A stretch of 49,746 bases of DNA, taken from contig CACYUI010000019.1 in assembly GCA_902777605.1 (NCBI GenBank), positions 1 to 49,746 of the forward strand. Reading direction: 5' to 3'. The DNA comes from an uncultured bacterium. Its GTDB lineage: Bacteria; Cyanobacteriota; Vampirovibrionia; Gastranaerophilales; Gastranaerophilaceae. Of the stretch, positions 3,956 through 13,553 are shown piece by piece; the stretch's first letter is position 1; each line of letters begins with the position of its first letter. The position numbers and the translations under genes are program-made. The notes under the pieces were generated by a model. It searched no databases and was not told where the DNA came from. It saw only the letters and a program-made list of their open reading frames with translations.

Positions 3956-6157
3956 TTATAAAACTTCTTTTTTTAAACGTTCGTATTCATAATTTGATAG
4001 TAGTTCGCTTCTTACTATATCTTGATGATGTTGCTTTATATATTGAACAAATTCTTCGTCTTTAATATGTTCTGGTACATAATAATCTATTTTTCTAATT
4101 GCAGTTTTGGGCAAATCAAATTCCATTAATAAACTTGCCCTTTGCGACATATAATCATTTTCAAGCATTGCTATAAATAAAGAGTAGTCACCTGGTGTAA
4201 GATTGTATAACTTGCATACATATTTCTGCAATTCATTAAAACAACCAAACCATTTTGGAAGCTTATAATCAAACCAGTGTCGTTGAATCTGGAAACCAGA
4301 TGTCAATGCATAGTTGTAATCATTACTATTATCTTCATGTAAGTATTTAACTTCGTTTTTTACAACAGCATAAAGATTGTGCACTATATTGCATTTTTTT
4401 ATTAATACCGCTAATTTTTTAGGAGTTATATTGCCTCCCGTTTCTGTTGGTTTTATTAGATTCTGAAAACAGAGTTCTAATATGTTTAAAGACTGGTTAT
4501 AGTTTGGATAATATGTCCAATTAATTAAATTGTAATCCCTTTTTATATTTGTTTTTAAATAATCTAAGATATTTTTTTGTCCATCTATACTAAGACCATT
4601 TTTCTTAAACAATTCAAGTTCTTCTTCTGGTATTGATTGCAATTCTTTATATTCTTGAGATTCTTTATCTTTTATCTCTTCTTCTGGAGTATTTGCTAAT
4701 ATTTCTTTACTTAGAGGTTTTTCCTGATCTACAAAAGGAATGTCAATTTCTATTGCTTCTTCTTCAAATTTTTGGTAGAAAGAATGCAAATTCCCAACAT
4801 AATGTTTGAACATCCTACCTGAACGTCCTTTAATGTTTTTATAATCAAAGTAGTCTATTTTCTTTTGTTTAGGACCTCTCCAATTGTTATATATAATTAC
4901 ATTTTTTGCTGTTGTGTTAACGCCTTCGATTATAGTTGAAGTACAAAATAAATATAATAATTTACCATCATTAAAATAATCAATTATTGATGCATTTATA
5001 TGTTTCGGGAAAACTCCATTATGGACTCCAATTTTATGACGTAAACACGATGTTATTTCCCACTTATATGAAATACTGTCATTTATCCATTGAATCAGAG
5101 ATACATCCCTCTCAGTATTTAAATTGCGAGAATCTAAACTTTCTAGGTACTTTGCGAAATTTATCGCAGTTTCAGTAGATTTTTGAGGAGAAGAACAATA
5201 AATAATAGTTTGATCATTACATCTTACAAGTTCTTCAAACAAACGTTTTTCTTTTATTTCATTTTCATTATAGTACGAATTTCCATTTTTAATTTCATTT
5301 TCTTCATTAACTACTAATGTATAATCATATTTTTTAAATATAACATTATATTTATCAATAAATTCTTGAGATATATTGTCAATATGCGGGCCAAGAAAAT
5401 AAAATCTAGCCTTATGTTTGTTTAACATTTTATTACAAGCGTTATTTAAAACTTCATATCGTTCATCATCTCTTTTTTGGCTAATTTTATAAAATTCATC
5501 AAGAATGAACATATTAATTTTAGGCATCTCTTTATATTCCATAACTCTTTCTGCGGTCAATAGGAACAAATTACCTTTCTCTTCTGATGGTTTATCTGCA
5601 ACTCTAACAATAATTTTATATTTGTCGTCATATTTTCTTAAATTATTTCTTGTTTCATTTAATAATGCTAATGTTGGTTGAATTACAACAATATTCTTAT
5701 ATTTATTACTTGCCACTAATTCTTCTATTAATAAACTTTTACCAAAACTTGTAGGAGCGCTAATTACAAGATTGGTTTCCGTATTTAACAATAAATCACA
5801 AACTTCTTGTTGTGCAGAATGAAAATATATATTTCCCTTTAAATAATTAGCTTTATGGAATTCTTTAGAGATTTCTCCCCTTAAATTATCAAGATAAAAA
5901 TTTTCATTTTCTTTTTCGAGATATGGGTAAAAACCACACTTTGTAACAATATCAGTATATAATTTTCGCAATTCTTGTGGAATACTAATCCAATTATCAA
6001 TGATATAAATTACAATATTCCTTGCCAATTGCTTATCAGATGAATCTTCGGTGTCTAAAATAAGATTAAGCTCTTTCGCTAAAGAAAAATAATCTGACCA
6101 AGTAAAAGACCTATTTCTAATCTGGCTTATGATGTTGTTGTACTCTTCTGCAAACAT
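3956..6157 (-). CDS. hamB: Hachiman system helicase HamB
   Basis: 733 aa superfamily 2 helicase. The sequence shows Walker A APTSFGKS (134-141), motif Ia QPTLALLNETR (160-170), a DExH-like LDEFYK (219-224), TSTIIEGVNT (406-415) and motif VI GRSGR (444-448). A long C-terminal part has no motif I know. The gene starts 1 nt after hamA stops, so the two are translationally coupled. In Hachiman and the related AbpAB system, the helicase surveys DNA and releases or activates the HamA nuclease during phage infection. That role is inferred from family and gene pairing. Helicase identity is certain; the HamB assignment rests on the partner. Confidence 0.85.
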   Translation of the reverse strand: MFAEEYNNIISQIRNRSFTWSDYFSLAKELNLILDTEDSSDKQLARNIVIYIIDNWISIPQELRKLYTDIVTKCGFYPYLEKENENFYLDNLRGEISKEFHKANYLKGNIYFHSAQQEVCDLLLNTETNLVISAPTSFGKSLLIEELVASNKYKNIVVIQPTLALLNETRNNLRKYDDKYKIIVRVADKPSEEKGNLFLLTAERVMEYKEMPKINMFILDEFYKISQKRDDERYEVLNNACNKMLNKHKARFYFLGPHIDNISQEFIDKYNVIFKKYDYTLVVNEENEIKNGNSYYNENEIKEKRLFEELVRCNDQTIIYCSSPQKSTETAINFAKYLESLDSRNLNTERDVSLIQWINDSISYKWEITSCLRHKIGVHNGVFPKHINASIIDYFNDGKLLYLFCTSTIIEGVNTTAKNVIIYNNWRGPKQKKIDYFDYKNIKGRSGRMFKHYVGNLHSFYQKFEEEAIEIDIPFVDQEKPLSKEILANTPEEEIKDKESQEYKELQSIPEEELELFKKNGLSIDGQKNILDYLKTNIKRDYNLINWTYYPNYNQSLNILELCFQNLIKPTETGGNITPKKLAVLIKKCNIVHNLYAVVKNEVKYLHEDNSNDYNYALTSGFQIQRHWFDYKLPKWFGCFNELQKYVCKLYNLTPGDYSLFIAMLENDYMSQRASLLMEFDLPKTAIRKIDYYVPEHIKDEEFVQYIKQHHQDIVRSELLSNYEYERLKKEVL

Positions 6158-6158
6158 T

Positions 6159-7028
6159 TTATTCTACAACCTCATTAATGCGTTTATAATACTCTTCAAT
6201 GAGAACATCTTTGGAGGGAACTGGAAAGAGCATTAGTAAAATATTTAAACAGGCAGGTCGTATTATACCCTTATTGTCAAAATAATTATATAATTCTCCT
6301 ATATGAGCTTCATATTCTTTTATAAATTCTTCACAAATATTTGAATATTTTCCATACTCATCATAATTATATGTACAAAGTAAAGGAACATAAAGTGAAT
6401 CAATAACATTTTCCAATGTCTTTTCTGTTCTTAACAGGTATTCCCAATCATCAATGGTTCTTCTCATTGGTTTGATAATAGTTTCTTGGTCTACTAAGCT
6501 GTCACTTGAAACCGCTTCAGAAATTTTTACAAATTGTTTTCTTACGTAATCGGCTGTAAAATGTTTTTTTATATCATCGGCTAAAGCATCAATTCCGCCC
6601 TTGGCATCAGCATACATTTTACTTTCACCTAAAACAAGTATGTTTTTAGTTTCGTCAGGCAATATATGGACAATATCAAAACTTTTCGGACTTGTATTTT
6701 TATCTACAGCAAAATAAAAACGGCCAGCAAAAGGAATTGTTCCTAAATATTTTCTTAATAATGTATGTAGTATAATTTCTCCAAGATCGCCTTCTCTTTT
6801 TGAATTTCTTGCATTAGGATCCTTATATAATTTTTCGCAAGCATTAAAAAATCTTTGGTGTTCTTTAGGATTCTGTATATGCCGATATTTTATTCCGAAT
6901 ACAAATTCTAGTAATGAATCCATAAGAACATCAAGAAGTTCAGAAGATTTATCTCCACTTTCATCAAAATATAAGTAATATGATTTTAATGTTTCTTGAT
7001 TTATATGCTGAGGAACAATGTCTTTCAT
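6159..7028 (-). CDS. hamA: Hachiman nuclease effector HamA (DUF1837 family)
   Basis: 289 aa with DUF1837 features: an EGDLGEIILHTLL block (79-91), Asp118 in FDIVHI and Glu135-Ser-Lys137 in LVLGESKMYADAKGG. Together these form a plausible PD-(D/E)XK nuclease site. HamA is the DNA-degrading effector of the Hachiman anti-phage system, held in check by HamB. The pairing with a SF2 helicase one nucleotide downstream is the defining gene order. There is no Shine-Dalgarno; TACAAT at 7035-7040 ends 6 nt before the ATG, suggesting a leaderless operon mRNA. Active-site residues appear intact. Confidence 0.87.
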   Translation of the reverse strand: MKDIVPQHINQETLKSYYLYFDESGDKSSELLDVLMDSLLEFVFGIKYRHIQNPKEHQRFFNACEKLYKDPNARNSKREGDLGEIILHTLLRKYLGTIPFAGRFYFAVDKNTSPKSFDIVHILPDETKNILVLGESKMYADAKGGIDALADDIKKHFTADYVRKQFVKISEAVSSDSLVDQETIIKPMRRTIDDWEYLLRTEKTLENVIDSLYVPLLCTYNYDEYGKYSNICEEFIKEYEAHIGELYNYFDNKGIIRPACLNILLMLFPVPSKDVLIEEYYKRINEVVE

Positions 7029-7078: not shown

Positions 7079-7618
7079 TCATAAATAAAAATTCATATAG
7101 CTTTCATCAATAATATCTTGTTCGATGCCGATGTAGCGGAGGGTGATGGCGGAATAGGAATGGTTGAAAATCTTCTGCAGGAGTTCAATATTATCAAACT
7201 GTTTATAGTGGTGGTAGCCGAATGTTTTGCGCAGTGAATGTGTGCCGATTTTGTCCTGAAGATTCAATGTTTTTGCAGCCTTATTCAAAATCCTATATGC
7301 CTGGTTACGGTCAAGCCTGTTGCCTTGTTGCGTAATAAATAGCGGCTCATCTTCCGGACGGTCTTTTACAAAATCTTCAAGCACAACCTTTAGTTCCGGA
7401 TTTAGCGGAAAACGTTTGTTTTTCTTCGTCTTTTTCTCTTTAATTTCAACAAAATCCCTGCCCTTAACATCTCCGACATCAAGTTTCAAAATATCAGAAA
7501 TCCTGAGTCCGCAATTTATCCCGAAAATAAAAAGCACAAGATCTCGCTTTTTGCGTTTCAAGACCGCCTTCATTTTCTCAATATCCTCTCTATTCCTTAT
7601 CGGCTGGACAATATTCAT
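7079..7618 (-). CDS. Tyrosine recombinase/integrase, catalytic-domain-only
   Basis: 179 aa, about half the length of a full phage integrase and lacking a separate N-terminal arm/core-binding domain. The catalytic set is visible: Arg in CGLRISDIL, a Lys-rich beta-turn (EKKTKKNKR), HSLRKTFG (H-x-x-R), His in IFNHSYSAITLRYIG and a Tyr in the same segment. A strong AGGAGG precedes the ATG. It lies 8 nt downstream of an XRE regulator gene in the same operon and beside the Mu-like module. It could resolve or integrate the island. G+C looks higher than in the neighbouring Hachiman genes, suggesting a separate origin. Confidence 0.88.
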   Translation of the reverse strand: MNIVQPIRNREDIEKMKAVLKRKKRDLVLFIFGINCGLRISDILKLDVGDVKGRDFVEIKEKKTKKNKRFPLNPELKVVLEDFVKDRPEDEPLFITQQGNRLDRNQAYRILNKAAKTLNLQDKIGTHSLRKTFGYHHYKQFDNIELLQKIFNHSYSAITLRYIGIEQDIIDESYMNFYL

Positions 7619-8105: not shown

Positions 8106-8109
8106 AGTG

Positions 8110-10092
8110 ATGAATGTGAGTAAGATGAATAAAGACAAATACATTTCAATTCAAGAATTAGCAGACCTTAAAGGTGTGAGTGCCCGAGCGATTCGGATGT
8201 CGCGTGATAAATATGTCACCCGCGAGATAATTGTCAGAGGCGGAAAAAGTTTTGAAATTCTCTTATCAAGTATTGAGTTGGATTTACAGGAAAAATATTT
8301 TGAACAAAAGACACAAATAACGTCTGAATCAACGGCTTTGATACCTATTTTACCTGTTAAAAATCTTCCGACAAAAGTGAATGAGATTGCACTTGCGCGT
8401 TTGGATTTGCTCCGCGAATGGCAAAAATACAGAAAACATCACCCTGGGGGTAAAACCCGTGCCGGAGTTGAGTTTATTGAAAGCTACAATACCGGCATGT
8501 TGTATCCGCATATTTTTAAGGTGCTCGGCAAAACTTCAATCGGCTCGGTTGAGCGTTGGAAACGCAAGCTTGGAAATACGACGGATTATCATTTATTGCT
8601 GCCAAAATATGAGTATGCGACAAAGTTTCGCACCTCTTTGACCGATTATGAAAAACAGGTGTTTTTGAAAATTCTGTTGCACCCGAACAAATTTTGTGTC
8701 GGGAAAGCCATCTCGATAACCAAGCACATTTTGTCAAAAGAAGGACCAATAAATGTTCAGGATGCGACATTTCGCCGTTATGCGAATTGGTTTCGGGATA
8801 ATCATTATGACATTTGGACGTTAGCTCGGGATGGCGAAAAGGCTTTGAAAGACAATGTTGAGCCTTACATTTTGCGCGACATTTTAAAACTTGAGGTAGG
8901 GGATGTACTTGTAGCAGACGGGCATAAGCTATCGTTTCTGGTGCAAAATCCATTTACAGGGAAACCTACAAGAGCGACTTTAATCGGTTTTTTGGATTGG
9001 AAATCGACAGCACTTGTCGGGTACGAGATTATGCTTGAAGAAAATACCCAAAGTATCGCATCCGCCCTGCGTAACGCCATAATCAACTTGCAAAATATCC
9101 CAAAAATCGTTTACCAGGATAACGGCAGGGCGTTTAAAGCGAAATATTTTGTGAACACGGATTTTAAGGAAACAGGATTTGAAGGGATTTATGCACGGCT
9201 TGGGATTAAGACGGTTTTTGCTCGACCGTATAACGCAAGAGCAAAAGTCATTGAACGGTTTTTTAAAGAGTTTCAGGAAAGTTTTGAAAAGCTTTTGCCG
9301 ACTTATTCAGGTTCAAGTATTGAGAATAAGCCGGCGCATTTTAAGCGAAACGAGAAGTTTCATAGGCAGTATTTCAAGCCAAATTATTACCCGACGATTG
9401 ATGAGGTTAAAATGCTTGTGGATAAATGGCTTGAGTTTAAGAACTCTCAGCCTTGCCCGAACGATAAAAACCATACGATAACGCAAGTGTTTGAAAACAG
9501 GACGAAAATCAAAATTGACACGGTTCGGCTTGATGATTTAATGATGACGGCTGATATCAAGACGATTTATCAAAACGGGATTCGGTTCCTCGGCACGTTT
9601 TATTATTCAGATAAACTATATGGGCTCAAAACTCAGGTTATGATTCGATATTCACTTTTTGATTTATCCGAGATTAAAGTTTACACAGTCAAAAATCAGT
9701 TTTTATGTACCGCAAAACGCGTAACAAAAGCTCATCCGATGGCTTATCATCTCGGCGATATCAAAGACGTTGAGGATTTGAAACAAAAAATTCAAAAGCA
9801 AAAACGGCTTAAAAATAAGACGATTAAAGAATTACAGAAGTTTTTGCCGAATGTGGATTTGAAATTTATTGAGCAAGATATTGAAGAAGATATTCAAGAT
9901 GCAATCGAAGTTAAGCCTGTTAAAGCTAAAAAGCAAATACCGAGAGAAGTACAGATGAATGTGCCTGTGTTTTTAAATAAGTATGAAAAGTTTGAATGGC
10001 TTATGAAAAACGGCTGCACTTGTGAAGATGACAGGGTGTGGCTTGCGGAATACAAGCAAAGTGAGGAATATCGAGGTCTTTATGAAACGTAA
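8110..10092 (+). CDS. Mu-like (MuA family) DDE transposase
   Basis: About 660 aa, the size of phage Mu transposase A. N-terminal HTH KYISIQELADLKGVSARAIR, a linker, then the RNase H-like catalytic core with Asp in VLVADGHKL (about 270), Asp in VYQDNGRAF (about 337) and Glu in AKVIERFFKEF (about 382). This spacing is close to MuA D269/D336/E392. The C-terminal part is basic, as expected for MuB contact. An in-frame GTG lies just before the ATG. It overlaps the ATPase gene by 11 nt. No phage structural genes follow, so this is a transposon rather than a Mu prophage. G+C is visibly higher than in flanking genes. Confidence 0.93.
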   Translation: MNVSKMNKDKYISIQELADLKGVSARAIRMSRDKYVTREIIVRGGKSFEILLSSIELDLQEKYFEQKTQITSESTALIPILPVKNLPTKVNEIALARLDLLREWQKYRKHHPGGKTRAGVEFIESYNTGMLYPHIFKVLGKTSIGSVERWKRKLGNTTDYHLLLPKYEYATKFRTSLTDYEKQVFLKILLHPNKFCVGKAISITKHILSKEGPINVQDATFRRYANWFRDNHYDIWTLARDGEKALKDNVEPYILRDILKLEVGDVLVADGHKLSFLVQNPFTGKPTRATLIGFLDWKSTALVGYEIMLEENTQSIASALRNAIINLQNIPKIVYQDNGRAFKAKYFVNTDFKETGFEGIYARLGIKTVFARPYNARAKVIERFFKEFQESFEKLLPTYSGSSIENKPAHFKRNEKFHRQYFKPNYYPTIDEVKMLVDKWLEFKNSQPCPNDKNHTITQVFENRTKIKIDTVRLDDLMMTADIKTIYQNGIRFLGTFYYSDKLYGLKTQVMIRYSLFDLSEIKVYTVKNQFLCTAKRVTKAHPMAYHLGDIKDVEDLKQKIQKQKRLKNKTIKELQKFLPNVDLKFIEQDIEEDIQDAIEVKPVKAKKQIPREVQMNVPVFLNKYEKFEWLMKNGCTCEDDRVWLAEYKQSEEYRGLYET

Positions 10093-10771
10093 ATTTGTTG
10101 TAACGCAGAATGTGAAACGATTTGTGGATTTGATGGATACGCTAAAAAATGCGCCCGCGAATCTGCCGAAGATGGCACTTGTGTATGGCGATTTCGGGCT
10201 CGGGAAGTCGCAAACGATTATGTGGTGGGTTACGAATAACGATGCGATTTATGTACGGTGTAACCACAAAATGTCTGCGCGTTGGCTTTTGACCGAGATT
10301 GTTGAGGAGCTTGATGATGTGCCGACATACCTGACCTCGCTCTTGTTTAAGCAGATTGAGGATAAACTGCGCGAGCGGCCAAAGGTTTTGGTGGTGGATG
10401 AGGTTGATTTTCTTTTGAATAACTCGTCTGCGATTGAGATTGTCCGCGATTTGCACGACAAAATTGGGATTCCCGTTGTACTTGTCGGAATGAGCCTTGC
10501 GGAAGCAAAACTCAAACGACACAAGCACATTTATGACAGACTTTTGGGTGTGTTGAAGTTTGAAACTTTTAATAAAGATGATGTGGCAAAAATCGTGAAT
10601 GAAATTTCGGATGTCGAATTTGAGCCTGATGCATTGGAACTTGTTTGTACAAAATTTAATCAGTTCAGGCAGATTGTGAAATTTTTAAATAAAGTCGAAA
10701 ACGTTGCCGAGATGAACAATTTGAAAACGATTACGCTGCCGGTTTTGGAGGGAATTTTGAATGAAAAATAA
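10082..10771 (+). CDS. MuB/TniB-like AAA+ transposition ATPase
   Basis: About 229 aa. Walker A is GDFGLGKSQ (36-44) and Walker B is VLVVDEVDFL, followed by a sensor region VVLVGMSLAEAKL. MuB-type ATPases bind target DNA and deliver it to the transposase. The ATG at 10082 overlaps the transposase stop; the frame continues upstream of it, but the overlap and a GAGG favour this start. Its 3' end overlaps the third gene by 11 nt, so the three form one translationally coupled operon. Confidence 0.9.
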   Translation: MKRKFVVTQNVKRFVDLMDTLKNAPANLPKMALVYGDFGLGKSQTIMWWVTNNDAIYVRCNHKMSARWLLTEIVEELDDVPTYLTSLLFKQIEDKLRERPKVLVVDEVDFLLNNSSAIEIVRDLHDKIGIPVVLVGMSLAEAKLKRHKHIYDRLLGVLKFETFNKDDVAKIVNEISDVEFEPDALELVCTKFNQFRQIVKFLNKVENVAEMNNLKTITLPVLEGILNEK

Positions 10772-11417
10772 GATTTTGAAACTCGCTAAAAGGCTTGAAA
10801 CATTCAGTCTTGAAGACATTGAATCTATTATGGGCGAAGGGATAGAAGACGTTTTACAAGAACTCGTTGATGACAGACAGTTGAATTTGGTTGGCGAAAT
10901 TTATTCATATAAAGCCGAGCAAAATTTACCACTGCCGTTTTGTTTCAAATTCCATTCGCAGGAAAAAATTGAGATGATAACAAAGTGTTTTTGTGCCGGG
11001 GTGAAGTCGAAACAGGCGAGTTTTCTTTTGGATATCGGGGATGCGACAATGCAGAATTTTTATAAACATTTTCGGCAGATGATTTATGAACGGCAATTGA
11101 ACGCCCTTAAAACGCACTTTGAACAAAATCCTAAAATTGCCAAGATGCGGAGGTTTTACGATATACCTGTTTGTTTTTATCTATATGACAACGAGCTTTT
11201 TGTAGTCGATAAGCCGCTAAAAACAAAACGGAAGAAACTTCCACACACAAAGGAAGAATCTTTGCGAATAAAAGTTCTCTACTCCCGCCTCCGCCGTTCA
11301 ATAAATCATTCCCAAATGAAACAAAACCTTGCACAGCATGTGGCTGAGCATATATTTCGTTACAGAAAAAAGCTGACTACATATTTTGAGAAATTCTATT
11401 TTCATGCTACATTTTAA
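10761..11417 (+). CDS. Unknown third protein of Mu-like transposition operon
   Basis: 218 aa, not recognised. The N-terminus (about 1-55) looks like a winged-helix fold (KLAKRLETFSLEDIESIMG, then VLQELVDDRQLNLVGEIYSY). The middle has an HTH-like AGVKSKQASFLLDIGDATMQ, and the C-terminus is very basic. It has no zinc-finger pattern and so does not resemble TniQ. Its 11-nt overlap with the ATPase gene says it belongs to the transposition machinery, perhaps as a target-choice or DNA-binding factor. It ends 2 nt before the retron inverted repeat starts. Confidence 0.65.
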   Translation: MKNKILKLAKRLETFSLEDIESIMGEGIEDVLQELVDDRQLNLVGEIYSYKAEQNLPLPFCFKFHSQEKIEMITKCFCAGVKSKQASFLLDIGDATMQNFYKHFRQMIYERQLNALKTHFEQNPKIAKMRRFYDIPVCFYLYDNELFVVDKPLKTKRKKLPHTKEESLRIKVLYSRLRRSINHSQMKQNLAQHVAEHIFRYRKKLTTYFEKFYFHATF

Positions 11418-11419
11418 TT

Positions 11420-11551
11420 GCAAGCTTAATTGACTTTTCATTGGTCGGTTCGCAATGAGTTTTAACAATGTTAGGAACATAGTGCCTACAGCCTTACAAT
11501 CACTAAATATTTATACTGGTACACAGTTGCAATAAGTAGAATTAAGCTTGC
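11420..11551 (+). ncRNA. Putative retron msr-msd RNA
   Basis: A perfect 12-bp inverted repeat (GCAAGCTTAATT at 11420-11431, AATTAAGCTTGC at 11540-11551) brackets 108 nt directly upstream of a retron-type RT. This is the arrangement of retron a1/a2 arms. The base after a1 is G (11432), the expected branch-point base. Inside is a hairpin CATTG/CAATG (11439-11457) with a 9-nt loop holding GGTTCG, and a short TAAC/GTTA hairpin. A possible outer extension of the arms (ATTTTAA with TTAAAAT) exists. I do not see the long msd hairpin of well-known retrons, so the msd boundary is open. Confidence 0.65.
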
Positions 11552-11567
11552 TTTTTAAAATAAAAAG

Positions 11568-13169
11568 ATGAAACATAATTTAAAAAGAAAACCTAAAGAC
11601 ATAATAGAAAAATTTAAAGCACTCTCTTCGAGAGAAGATGTTGCCGATTTACTTGAAATATCAGATAAACAACTTCGGTATTACTTGTATAGTCTTTCAG
11701 ATACAGAAAAATATACTAAATTTAATATTCCTAAAAAGAATGGTGGAAGCAGAGAGATTACTGCTCCAATAAAAAATTTTAAATTAATACAAAAAAATCT
11801 TGCACACATATTATACTTAATTCATAATCCGAGAATATGTTCATATGGTTTTGAAAAAAATTATAAAAATAAGGAGCAAGAAACCGTTTATAAAGGAATC
11901 TGCCCAAACGCCAAATTACATATTAATAAAAATAATGTATTAAATGTTGATTTAAAAGATTTTTTTACTTCTATAAATTTTGGCCGTGTAAGAGGGATGT
12001 TTATGGCATTACCTCACAATTTTAGTTCTGATGTTGCTACCGTAATTGCACAAATATGCTGTACAAATAATGCTTTACCTCAAGGAGCACCAACATCTCC
12101 TATAATTTCAAATATGATTTTAAAAAGTTTTGACTCAAAAATGCTTAAATTAGTTAAACCATTAAAATGTACTTATTCAAGATATGCTGACGATATAACT
12201 ATATCAACTAATTTAAAAACTTTACCTAAAGAAATATATGATTATACTCAAAATTCTATATCTACAGATTTGAATAGCATAATAGAAGATAATGGTTTTG
12301 AAGTTAATAAACAAAAAATTCGATTACAAACAAAAATACAAAGACAATCTGTAACGGGCCTAATTGTGAATAAAAAAACTAATGTACCTCGAGATTATAT
12401 AAAAAATGTCAGAGCATTACTATTTAGATGGGAAAAAGATGGAGAAGAAAACGCAGATAAATATTTTCAAGAACATTTTAAAAAATGTAAATTGAGAAGA
12501 GTCTTATTAGGAAGAATTTCTCACATAGGAAATGTTAGAGGTGTTGAAGATCCTATATTTATTAAACTATGGAATAAATATCATATACTAATTGGACAAT
12601 CTGATAAGATAAAAGCATTAATTAGCGAAGACAAAGAAATATTAACTCTAATATCAAAAGGTGAAAATAGTGAACTAGAATTTAAGCAAGCTTATGAGTA
12701 TTCCCAAGATGAGAAAAGATGCAACAATAAATTATATTACAGACCACAAGGCAAAAAAGAAGATATTCCTACAATGAAACATAAGGTTCTTAAAACAGTT
12801 TGTGCATTTCTTAACTCAAATTCTGGGGGAACACTTCTTCTTGGTGTCGAAGATAATTCTACAATACGAGGCTTGAAAGAAGATATAAAAAATAACAAGA
12901 ATAATTTAGATAGTCTCGCTTTATCAATAGACCATGCAATAAAAGACAATATTACTCCTTCTCCAATTGGAAATATAAAAACCAAATTTTATAAGATTCA
13001 TAATAAATATATATGCAAAATCGATATTGAACCCTACTACGATCCAGTATACTTAAAAACGCATGGTGGAATTTTTTATGTAAGAAATGATGTAGAATCT
13101 GTTGAGATTAAAGATAAAGATAAAATAGATCAATGGATAAGAGCACACAATAAGTTACAAAGAAACTAA
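11568..13169 (+). CDS. Retron reverse transcriptase fused to C-terminal AlbA_2/Schlafen-like domain
   Basis: 533 aa. Retron RT hallmarks: NAKLH (NAxxH, 114-118), motif A NVDLKDFFTSI (126-136), PQGAPTSP (171-178), YADD (206-209) and VTG in SVTGLIVNK (261-269). About residues 365-515 form a second domain: SELEFKQAY, TVCAFLNSNSGGTLLLGVED and a late GGIFYVRND. This pattern is typical of AlbA_2/Schlafen-type putative nucleic-acid or NTP-binding domains. The RT would copy the upstream RNA to msDNA, and the fused domain is the likely effector; that is inference. The gene is more AT-rich than the transposition genes before it. Confidence 0.88.
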   Translation: MKHNLKRKPKDIIEKFKALSSREDVADLLEISDKQLRYYLYSLSDTEKYTKFNIPKKNGGSREITAPIKNFKLIQKNLAHILYLIHNPRICSYGFEKNYKNKEQETVYKGICPNAKLHINKNNVLNVDLKDFFTSINFGRVRGMFMALPHNFSSDVATVIAQICCTNNALPQGAPTSPIISNMILKSFDSKMLKLVKPLKCTYSRYADDITISTNLKTLPKEIYDYTQNSISTDLNSIIEDNGFEVNKQKIRLQTKIQRQSVTGLIVNKKTNVPRDYIKNVRALLFRWEKDGEENADKYFQEHFKKCKLRRVLLGRISHIGNVRGVEDPIFIKLWNKYHILIGQSDKIKALISEDKEILTLISKGENSELEFKQAYEYSQDEKRCNNKLYYRPQGKKEDIPTMKHKVLKTVCAFLNSNSGGTLLLGVEDNSTIRGLKEDIKNNKNNLDSLALSIDHAIKDNITPSPIGNIKTKFYKIHNKYICKIDIEPYYDPVYLKTHGGIFYVRNDVESVEIKDKDKIDQWIRAHNKLQRN

Positions 13170-13553
13170 AATTTACCTTCCGACTAGCTTCCGAGTTTGG
13201 GAATGGGTAAATTCAAAGCGGACTTTTTGTCCGGAAAGTGTCATCGGGAAATGTAGCGATATATTTAGGTTATAGCGATTTGGGTGGATTTATTGTGGAA
13301 AGTTGCTGCCAAATTGTGGACAATAAAGTGACTTTCTGAGTAGTTTCAGTCAACCACTCGGAAGAGGGTGTAATTCAAACGTAAAGCCGAAAGTCGGCAG
13401 AAAAATCTTTTTTCAAATGTCCCATTAAAACCCAATAATCTACAATAATCTACAATAGTATGTTCGAACTTTTCTTATGACGGTTCAAACATAGTCATAG
13501 AGCCTAATCCATTATTTAAGGCCGTCATTAAGAACGGCCTTTGCAATAAAAAA
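13170..13553. other. Non-coding stretch after the retron: candidate transposon right end and island edge
   Basis: No convincing gene. It holds inverted TTCCGACTA (13178-13186) and CTTCCGAG (13188-13195), a CGGAC/GTCCG hairpin (13219-13233), a further TCGGAAGAG (13358-13366) shared with 8099-8107, and a GCCGA/TCGGC hairpin (13386-13398) followed by A- and T-rich DNA. It also has a tandem AATAATCTAC duplication (13434-13453) and the 8-bp hairpin at 13518-13541. G+C of the first half resembles the transposition genes rather than the retron. No exact terminal repeat or target duplication could be fixed. Confidence 0.4.
13518..13541. terminator. Hairpin beyond the tRNA-Asn 3' end
   Basis: AAGGCCGT pairs with ACGGCCTT across an 8-nt loop. 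It lies about 12 nt past a T-run that follows the tRNA on the minus strand. There is no strong U-tract after the stem in either direction, so terminator function is only possible. Confidence 0.35.

What the first reader, a model, noticed from the sequence alone, without database searches (positions are those of the whole stretch)
11420..11551. Perfect 12-bp inverted repeat encloses a putative 132-nt msr-msd RNA
GCAAGCTTAATT and its complement bracket the gap between the transposition operon and the RT, with G as the first base after the left arm. Size, place and arm length fit retron a1/a2. The interior is short and lacks an obvious long msd hairpin, so the msDNA would be small or the fold unusual.
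Basis: seen in the sequence. Interest (0 to 1): 0.65.

Follow-up and report, generated by a model that had tools for sequence, protein, structure and literature searches.

The report
Retron RNA beside RT-Schlafen fusion gene
The inverted repeat is the folded ends of the RNA of a retron, a bacterial anti-phage device that copies part of its own RNA into DNA; here the copying enzyme is fused to a Schlafen-type nuclease domain that no retron profile in the libraries searched contains, and the whole unit is swappable cargo of a transposon.

Summary
GCAAGCTTAATT/AATTAAGCTTGC brackets 11420-11551, and it is the only perfect repeat of 12 bp or more with that spacing in the window (20 of 5000 shuffles of the region have one). 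Its reading as a retron a1/a2 pair is supported. Three independent relatives carrying the same RT fusion have a repeat at the same place with different arm sequences; 7 of the window's 12 pairs differ from one or more relatives on both sides. A covariance model built without the window finds 11416-11555(+) at E=5e-8. Between the arms lie a G in the branch position, an msr hairpin shared with Ec67/Eco2-type retrons, and a conserved 3-nt-loop hairpin. The RT has NAxxH, YADD and VTG; its nearest solved relative is Retron-Eco2. Its C-terminal effector is SLFN_AlbA_2 (Schlafen), absent from the PADLOC and NCBIfam retron models it matched and found here only in Gastranaerophilaceae. Promoter, RNA and RT-effector form one cassette, exchangeable cargo of a TnsB/TnsC-type transposon beside tRNA-Asn; the same slot holds PARIS or a PD-T4-7-like gene in relatives. 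Best reading: a retron with a fused Schlafen nuclease effector, making a weakly folded msDNA of about 70 nt. No msDNA, transcript or defence has been shown.

The parts
11386..11413 (+). putative promoter TTGAGA-16-TACATT with TGC before the second hexamer, ending 6 nt before a1
   Evidence: pattern match, weak alone; in 7 of 13 relatives a 5-6/6 TATAAT lies 6-8 nt before a1
11420..11551 (+). retron ncRNA (msr-msd), a1 to a2
   Evidence: inverted repeat, covariation, covariance-model hit 11416-11555 E=5e-8
11420..11431 (+). a1 arm
11432..11432 (+). candidate branch G (2'-5' priming site)
   Evidence: position matches rG15 of Eco2; conserved AATT-G in all RT-SLFN relatives
11438..11458 (+). msr stem-loop TCATTG-GTCGGTTCG-CAATGA
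   Evidence: one double change within the RT-SLFN set; same hairpin in RT-protease, cyanobacterial, Listeria and Ec67-family relatives
11468..11480 (+). short 3-nt-loop hairpin ATGTT-AGG-AACAT, probably at or near the 3' end of the cDNA
   Evidence: unrelated stem sequences but a 3-nt-loop hairpin at the same place in L008, L009, L040
11481..11539 (+). rest of the msd template; TGC...GCA closing pairs; conserved TAAGT.GAATT before a2
   Evidence: extent of the cDNA is inferred by analogy with Eco2
11540..11551 (+). a2 arm
11568..13169 (+). RT-SLFN_AlbA_2 fusion, 533 aa: retron RT (about 1-345; NAKLH 114, YADD 206, VTG 262) plus Schlafen AlbA_2 domain (366-513; candidate acidic residues E366, E371, D429)
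   Evidence: Pfam, PADLOC, PDB search, fold search, alignments, positions
11336..13050 (+). exchangeable cassette (promoter, ncRNA, RT-effector); right limit approximate
   Evidence: nearly identical to SIG27/G440 inside, 6-10% divergent outside; absent from the same transposon in L083 and L084, whose homology stops at 11353 and resumes at about 13172
8107..11417 (+). TnsB-like transposase, TnsC/TniB-like ATPase and third gene: the vehicle
13172..13434 (+). right-end region of the transposon with TTCCGA repeats
   Evidence: 86% identical in L083 (two copies) and L084; repeats

Best explanation
11420-11551 is the ncRNA of a retron whose RT carries a fused Schlafen (SLFN_AlbA_2) domain. Transcription probably starts at or next to a1. 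a1 and a2 pair, the RT binds the msr hairpin and primes from the 2'-OH of G11432, and it copies from just before a2 (about 11538) back to about 11468, giving a branched msDNA with a weakly folded DNA of about 70 nt. The RT-SLFN protein and msDNA form an inhibited complex. Phage damage to or loss of the msDNA frees the SLFN domain, which cleaves RNA (tRNA or similar) and stops the infected cell. Shown here by computation: RNA architecture, covariation, RT family, effector domain, cassette unit. Inferred from Eco2 and SLFN13: branch base, cDNA ends, inhibition, trigger, nuclease activity, defence. The confidence given is for retron ncRNA plus fused SLFN effector; the nuclease-release steps alone deserve about 0.6.
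For: Repeat rare by chance. Same-place repeats in relatives with different arms, 7 of 12 pairs changed on both sides. Out-of-sample covariance model E=5e-8, + strand only; across 383 genomes of the family 6 of its 7 hits lie directly upstream of retron RTs. Msr hairpin shared with Eco2-type retrons, including an Ec67-family locus of E. coli. RT: NAxxH/YADD/VTG, Retron Ec67 E=1.8e-58, Eco2 as top fold match. SLFN_AlbA_2 E=1.3e-19 in the window and 4e-14 to 3e-19 in three relatives, E366/E371/D429 invariant in the four, in line with the SLFN13 E205/E210/D248 triad (PMC5862951). Cassette moves as a unit and the same slot holds other defence genes.
Against: No transcript or msDNA data. The window's msd folds no better than shuffles as DNA, unlike L008 and L009. 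The single-sequence RNA fold does not show the msr hairpin and the whole is only mildly stable (z=-1.94). The window's -10 hexamer is poor (4/6). The SLFN domain was modelled with pLDDT under 50, so its active site rests on sequence alone. With the stricter whole-genome filters the model did not recover the window in its own genome.
Confidence: 0.9

Rival explanations
1. It is a retron ncRNA, but the SLFN_AlbA_2 domain acts mainly as a nucleic-acid-binding module (AlbA-like) that holds msDNA or a regulator, not as a nuclease effector.
For: AlbA_2 domains are named for nucleic-acid binding; no structure was obtained for the domain and nuclease activity is inferred from three residues.
Against: The two glutamates and the aspartate are invariant in four diverged fusions; close RT relatives carry a fused catalytic domain at the same place (trypsin-like; PADLOC I-C and XII models).
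Confidence: 0.25
2. The repeat is a transcription attenuator or terminator, or a recombination site of the transposon's cargo slot, unrelated to reverse transcription.
For: It lies 2 nt after the stop of the transposition operon and close to a cargo boundary.
Against: The repeat travels with the RT and is absent from the same transposon carrying other cargo; RT-SLFN relatives L008 and L040 have it with no transposition gene in the fetched flank; no terminator-like site there; interior hairpins and AATT-G are conserved.
Confidence: 0.03
3. A decayed or inactive retron: an intact-looking RT with an msd that no longer makes a useful msDNA.
For: Weak msd folding and a poor promoter match.
Against: Open 533-aa frame with all RT motifs; the cassette is present with 99% identity in a second genome, with a single change in 132 nt of RNA.
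Confidence: 0.06

Closest known systems
Retron-Eco2 (Ec67), type I-C RT-Toprim
   Same: Single fused protein; a1-G-short linker-msr stem-loop-msd-a2 upstream of the RT; same loop motif TCG-CAA; top solved relative of the RT; msDNA of similar size (67 nt).
   Different: Effector is SLFN_AlbA_2 instead of Toprim; NCBIfam Ec67 model scores below its cut-off (345.7 of 450 bits); msd lacks the long DNA hairpin.
RT-protease retrons (PADLOC type XI)
   Same: Related RTs in the same bacterial family with the same msr hairpin and repeat spacing (L004-L007).
   Different: Trypsin-like domain instead of SLFN; their base in the branch position is A rather than G.
RT-TIR retrons (PADLOC type XII)
   Same: Best PADLOC score for the whole protein.
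   Different: No TIR domain; NCBIfam Retron_TIR score is below cut-off (343 of 600 bits).
Schlafen RNases (SLFN11/13/14)
   Same: Weak sequence match of the C-terminal domain (E about 0.002) with candidate acidic triad.
   Different: One AlbA_2 domain instead of the vertebrate two-lobed core; fused to an RT; activity untested.
Defence cargo of Tn7-like transposons (PMC8649781)
   Same: TnsB/TnsC-type transposon carrying exchangeable defence genes; that survey also counted retrons among the cargo.
   Different: Here the slot was compared across three copies: RT-SLFN retron, PARIS and a PD-T4-7-like gene.

Membership tests
retron | Retron-clade RT with NAxxH, YADD and VTG motifs | tested here: met
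   NAKLH at 114, YADD at 206, VTG at 262; PADLOC, PDB and NCBIfam retron hits
retron | Structured ncRNA next to the RT with pairing a1/a2 ends | tested here: met
retron | G at the end of a1 followed by an msr stem-loop | tested here: met
   G11432, conserved AATT-G; hairpin 11438-11458
retron | msDNA joined by a 2'-5' bond to the branch G | not testable with these tools
   needs msDNA isolation
retron | Associated or fused effector protein | tested here: met
   SLFN_AlbA_2 fused to the C-terminus, E=1.3e-19, in four diverged loci; effector function itself not tested
retron type I-C (RT-Toprim) | C-terminal Toprim domain | tested here: not met
   Pfam finds RVT_1 and SLFN_AlbA_2 only; NCBIfam Ec67 below cut-off
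retron type XI (RT-protease) | C-terminal trypsin-like protease | tested here: not met
   no protease domain; PADLOC match ends at residue 357
retron type XII (RT-TIR) | C-terminal TIR domain | tested here: not met
   no TIR in Pfam; NCBIfam Retron_TIR below cut-off
Schlafen-type nuclease | AlbA_2 fold with E/E/D metal-binding triad | tested here: inconclusive
   residues conserved but the domain was not modelled; assignment by motif and spacing
Rfam RNA families | match to a curated family | tested here: not met
   no match at E<=1

The most novel reading that the evidence does not exclude
A retron type not yet catalogued, in which the RT is fused to a Schlafen-type nuclease that the msDNA holds inactive, restricted so far to Gastranaerophilaceae and spread between their transposons as a defence cassette; it would link the Schlafen antiviral RNases of animals to a bacterial msDNA-controlled switch.
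Probability: 0.5. Interest if true: 0.65.

Novelty: new variant of a known kind. Interest (0 to 1): 0.52.

Why it matters
It adds an effector class to retrons with a defined RNA, and places a Schlafen-like domain under likely msDNA control, which makes the general question of how one RT-msDNA core drives unrelated effectors testable by comparing close relatives (SLFN, trypsin, AAA and Toprim) with the same msr. It also shows a defence slot in a transposon of non-photosynthetic cyanobacterial relatives, where PARIS, a PD-T4-7-like gene and a retron replace each other.

Tried and rejected
Rfam at E<=1: nothing. Close relatives or AlbA-domain relatives in viral contigs: none; a scan with an RT-domain alignment gave many retron RTs, none with an AlbA domain by a home-made profile. 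A strict motif scan of the msr hairpin in those viral loci matched only 2 of 40, because the pattern was too tight; not used as evidence. The covariance-model hit in G283 (E=0.004) has no related RT and is taken as chance. An AlphaFold model gave the RT (pLDDT mostly over 90) but not the SLFN domain. RT tree: the window's place among RT-SLFN proteins is not firmly resolved (AlbA group one side of a branch in 92% of bootstrap trees, support 57/84), so a single origin of the fusion is likely but not shown. Literature: no paper in the held library joins retron with Schlafen or AlbA_2 as an effector, but the main retron classification paper (10.1093/nar/gkaa1149) is not held, so novelty of the fusion is not proven.

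Full report
What is there. The 12-bp arms at 11420-11431 and 11540-11551 are exact. A perfect repeat of this length and spacing occurs in 20 of 5000 shuffles of the 300 bases before the RT, and nowhere else in the window. The left arm starts 2 nt after the stop of the third transposition gene; the right arm ends 16 nt before the RT start.

Neighbour gene. ORF 11568-13169 (533 aa) is a retron-clade RT: PADLOC's best models are RT-TIR XII, RT-Protease XI and RT-Toprim I-C, the nearest solved protein is Retron Ec67/Eco2 (E=1.8e-58), and the predicted RT domain matches Eco2 structures first. NAKLH, YADD and VTG are at residues 114, 206 and 262. The C-terminus is SLFN_AlbA_2 (Pfam E=1.3e-19), not Toprim, TIR or protease; both NCBIfam retron fusion models score below their cut-offs. 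It is the only Pfam RVT_1 match in the genome.

Relatives. The same fusion was found in G239 (L008), G076 (L009), G397 (L040) and, nearly identical, in SIG27/G440 (L001, L043), all in the window's own family (Gastranaerophilaceae; the family name is my inference from the SIG27 record and gene content, the tool gives only kinship labels). Sampled genomes of the class and phylum, plasmids and viral contigs gave other retron RTs but not this fusion. RT-protease relatives live in the same family (L004-L007).

The RNA. Each of these loci has an inverted repeat spanning 121-150 nt and lying 8-22 nt before the RT start (L040's start codon is less certain), with different arm sequences. Aligned from inside out, the window and the three diverged RT-SLFN loci keep every pair; 7 of the window's 12 pairs differ from one or more relatives on both sides, and the inner AATT followed by G is constant. 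RNAalifold on the four gives 9 pairs with double changes, in spite of a 2-nt register shift of the window's outer arm in that alignment. A covariance model from L008, L009 and L040 alone finds the window at 11416-11555(+), E=5e-8, and the RT-protease RNAs L005-L007. In 383 genomes of the family six of its seven hits lie directly before retron RTs; the window itself was missed there under stricter filters, so that screen is less sensitive than the local one.

Inner parts. G11432 sits where Eco2 has branch rG15; Eco2 has a 4-nt linker then the msr stem-loop. Here a 5-nt linker is followed by TCATTG-GTCGGTTCG-CAATGA, whose counterpart folds in the 12 relatives tested, including an Ec67-family locus of E. 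coli. Next comes a 3-nt-loop hairpin (ATGTT-AGG-AACAT) whose stem sequence is different in relatives while the shape is kept. The remaining template folds no better than shuffles as DNA (z=0.21), while L008 and L009 have clear hairpins. By analogy with Eco2, whose cDNA ends about 10 nt after the msr stem-loop, the cDNA would run from about 11538 to about 11468, some 70 nt; this is inference.

Transcription. Seven of 13 relatives have a 5-6/6 TATAAT ending 6-8 nt before a1; the window has TGC-TACATT at 6 nt. So a1 probably starts the transcript; no RNA data exist.

Cassette and transposon. Between window and SIG27 the transposition genes differ by 6-10%, but from 11336 to about 13000 only about nine bases differ; the 132-nt RNA differs by one. 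In G188 and G697 the same transposon matches up to about 11353 and again from about 13172 to 13434, with other cargo between: PARIS AriA/AriB in G188, a PD-T4-7-like gene in G697. The G188 copy lies next to the same tRNA-Asn flank. So promoter, RNA and fusion gene are one exchangeable defence unit. Tn7-like transposons are known to carry defence genes, retrons included (PMC8649781).

Mechanism. In Eco2 the msDNA is proposed to keep the fused Toprim RNase shut, and phage DenB to degrade the msDNA and open it (PMC12405507). SLFN13 cleaves tRNA/rRNA with E205, E210 and D248 (PMC5862951). In the four fusions two glutamates five apart (366, 371) and an aspartate (429) are invariant. The most likely working is the Eco2 scheme with a Schlafen nuclease as effector. 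Architecture is shown; inhibition, trigger, substrate and defence are inferred.

Verdict. The larger point is the effector. I call it a new variant of a known kind; whether the fusion has been listed before could not be checked, as the main classification paper is not in the library.

Noticed in passing
L004:1358-1481, L005:2384-2505(-), L006:103-225, L007:2416-2536(-), L057, L059: RT-protease relatives (L004-L007, L057) and the unclassified L059 have A or T where retrons carry the branch G; in L005-L007 there is no G between the a1 arm and the msr stem. Either priming is from another base or the branch lies elsewhere; worth an msDNA test.
   Followed up: partly
3956-7028 (-): Hachiman defence pair HamB (733 aa) and HamA (289 aa) next to a short tyrosine recombinase (7079-7618).
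   Followed up: no
L083:4528-7569: In G188 the transposon right end is present twice, with a Fic/HTH pair and a ClpP-like SDH protease gene between the copies: nested or tandem cargo.
   Followed up: partly
10761-11417: Third transposition gene has no Pfam, NCBIfam or PADLOC match; its last 20 residues differ with each cargo because the cassette boundary (about 11353) lies inside it.
   Followed up: partly
L037:2276-2370, L069: RT fused to an AAA_5 ATPase in Nostoc (L037) and a close homolog in a second cyanobacterium (L069), with a very short ncRNA (about 95-110 nt): possibly another retron effector class.
   Followed up: no
L085:1 and L001:5621: Both records of SIG27/G440 break 18 nt after the RT stop, at the transposon right end, as expected for a repeated sequence.
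   Followed up: no
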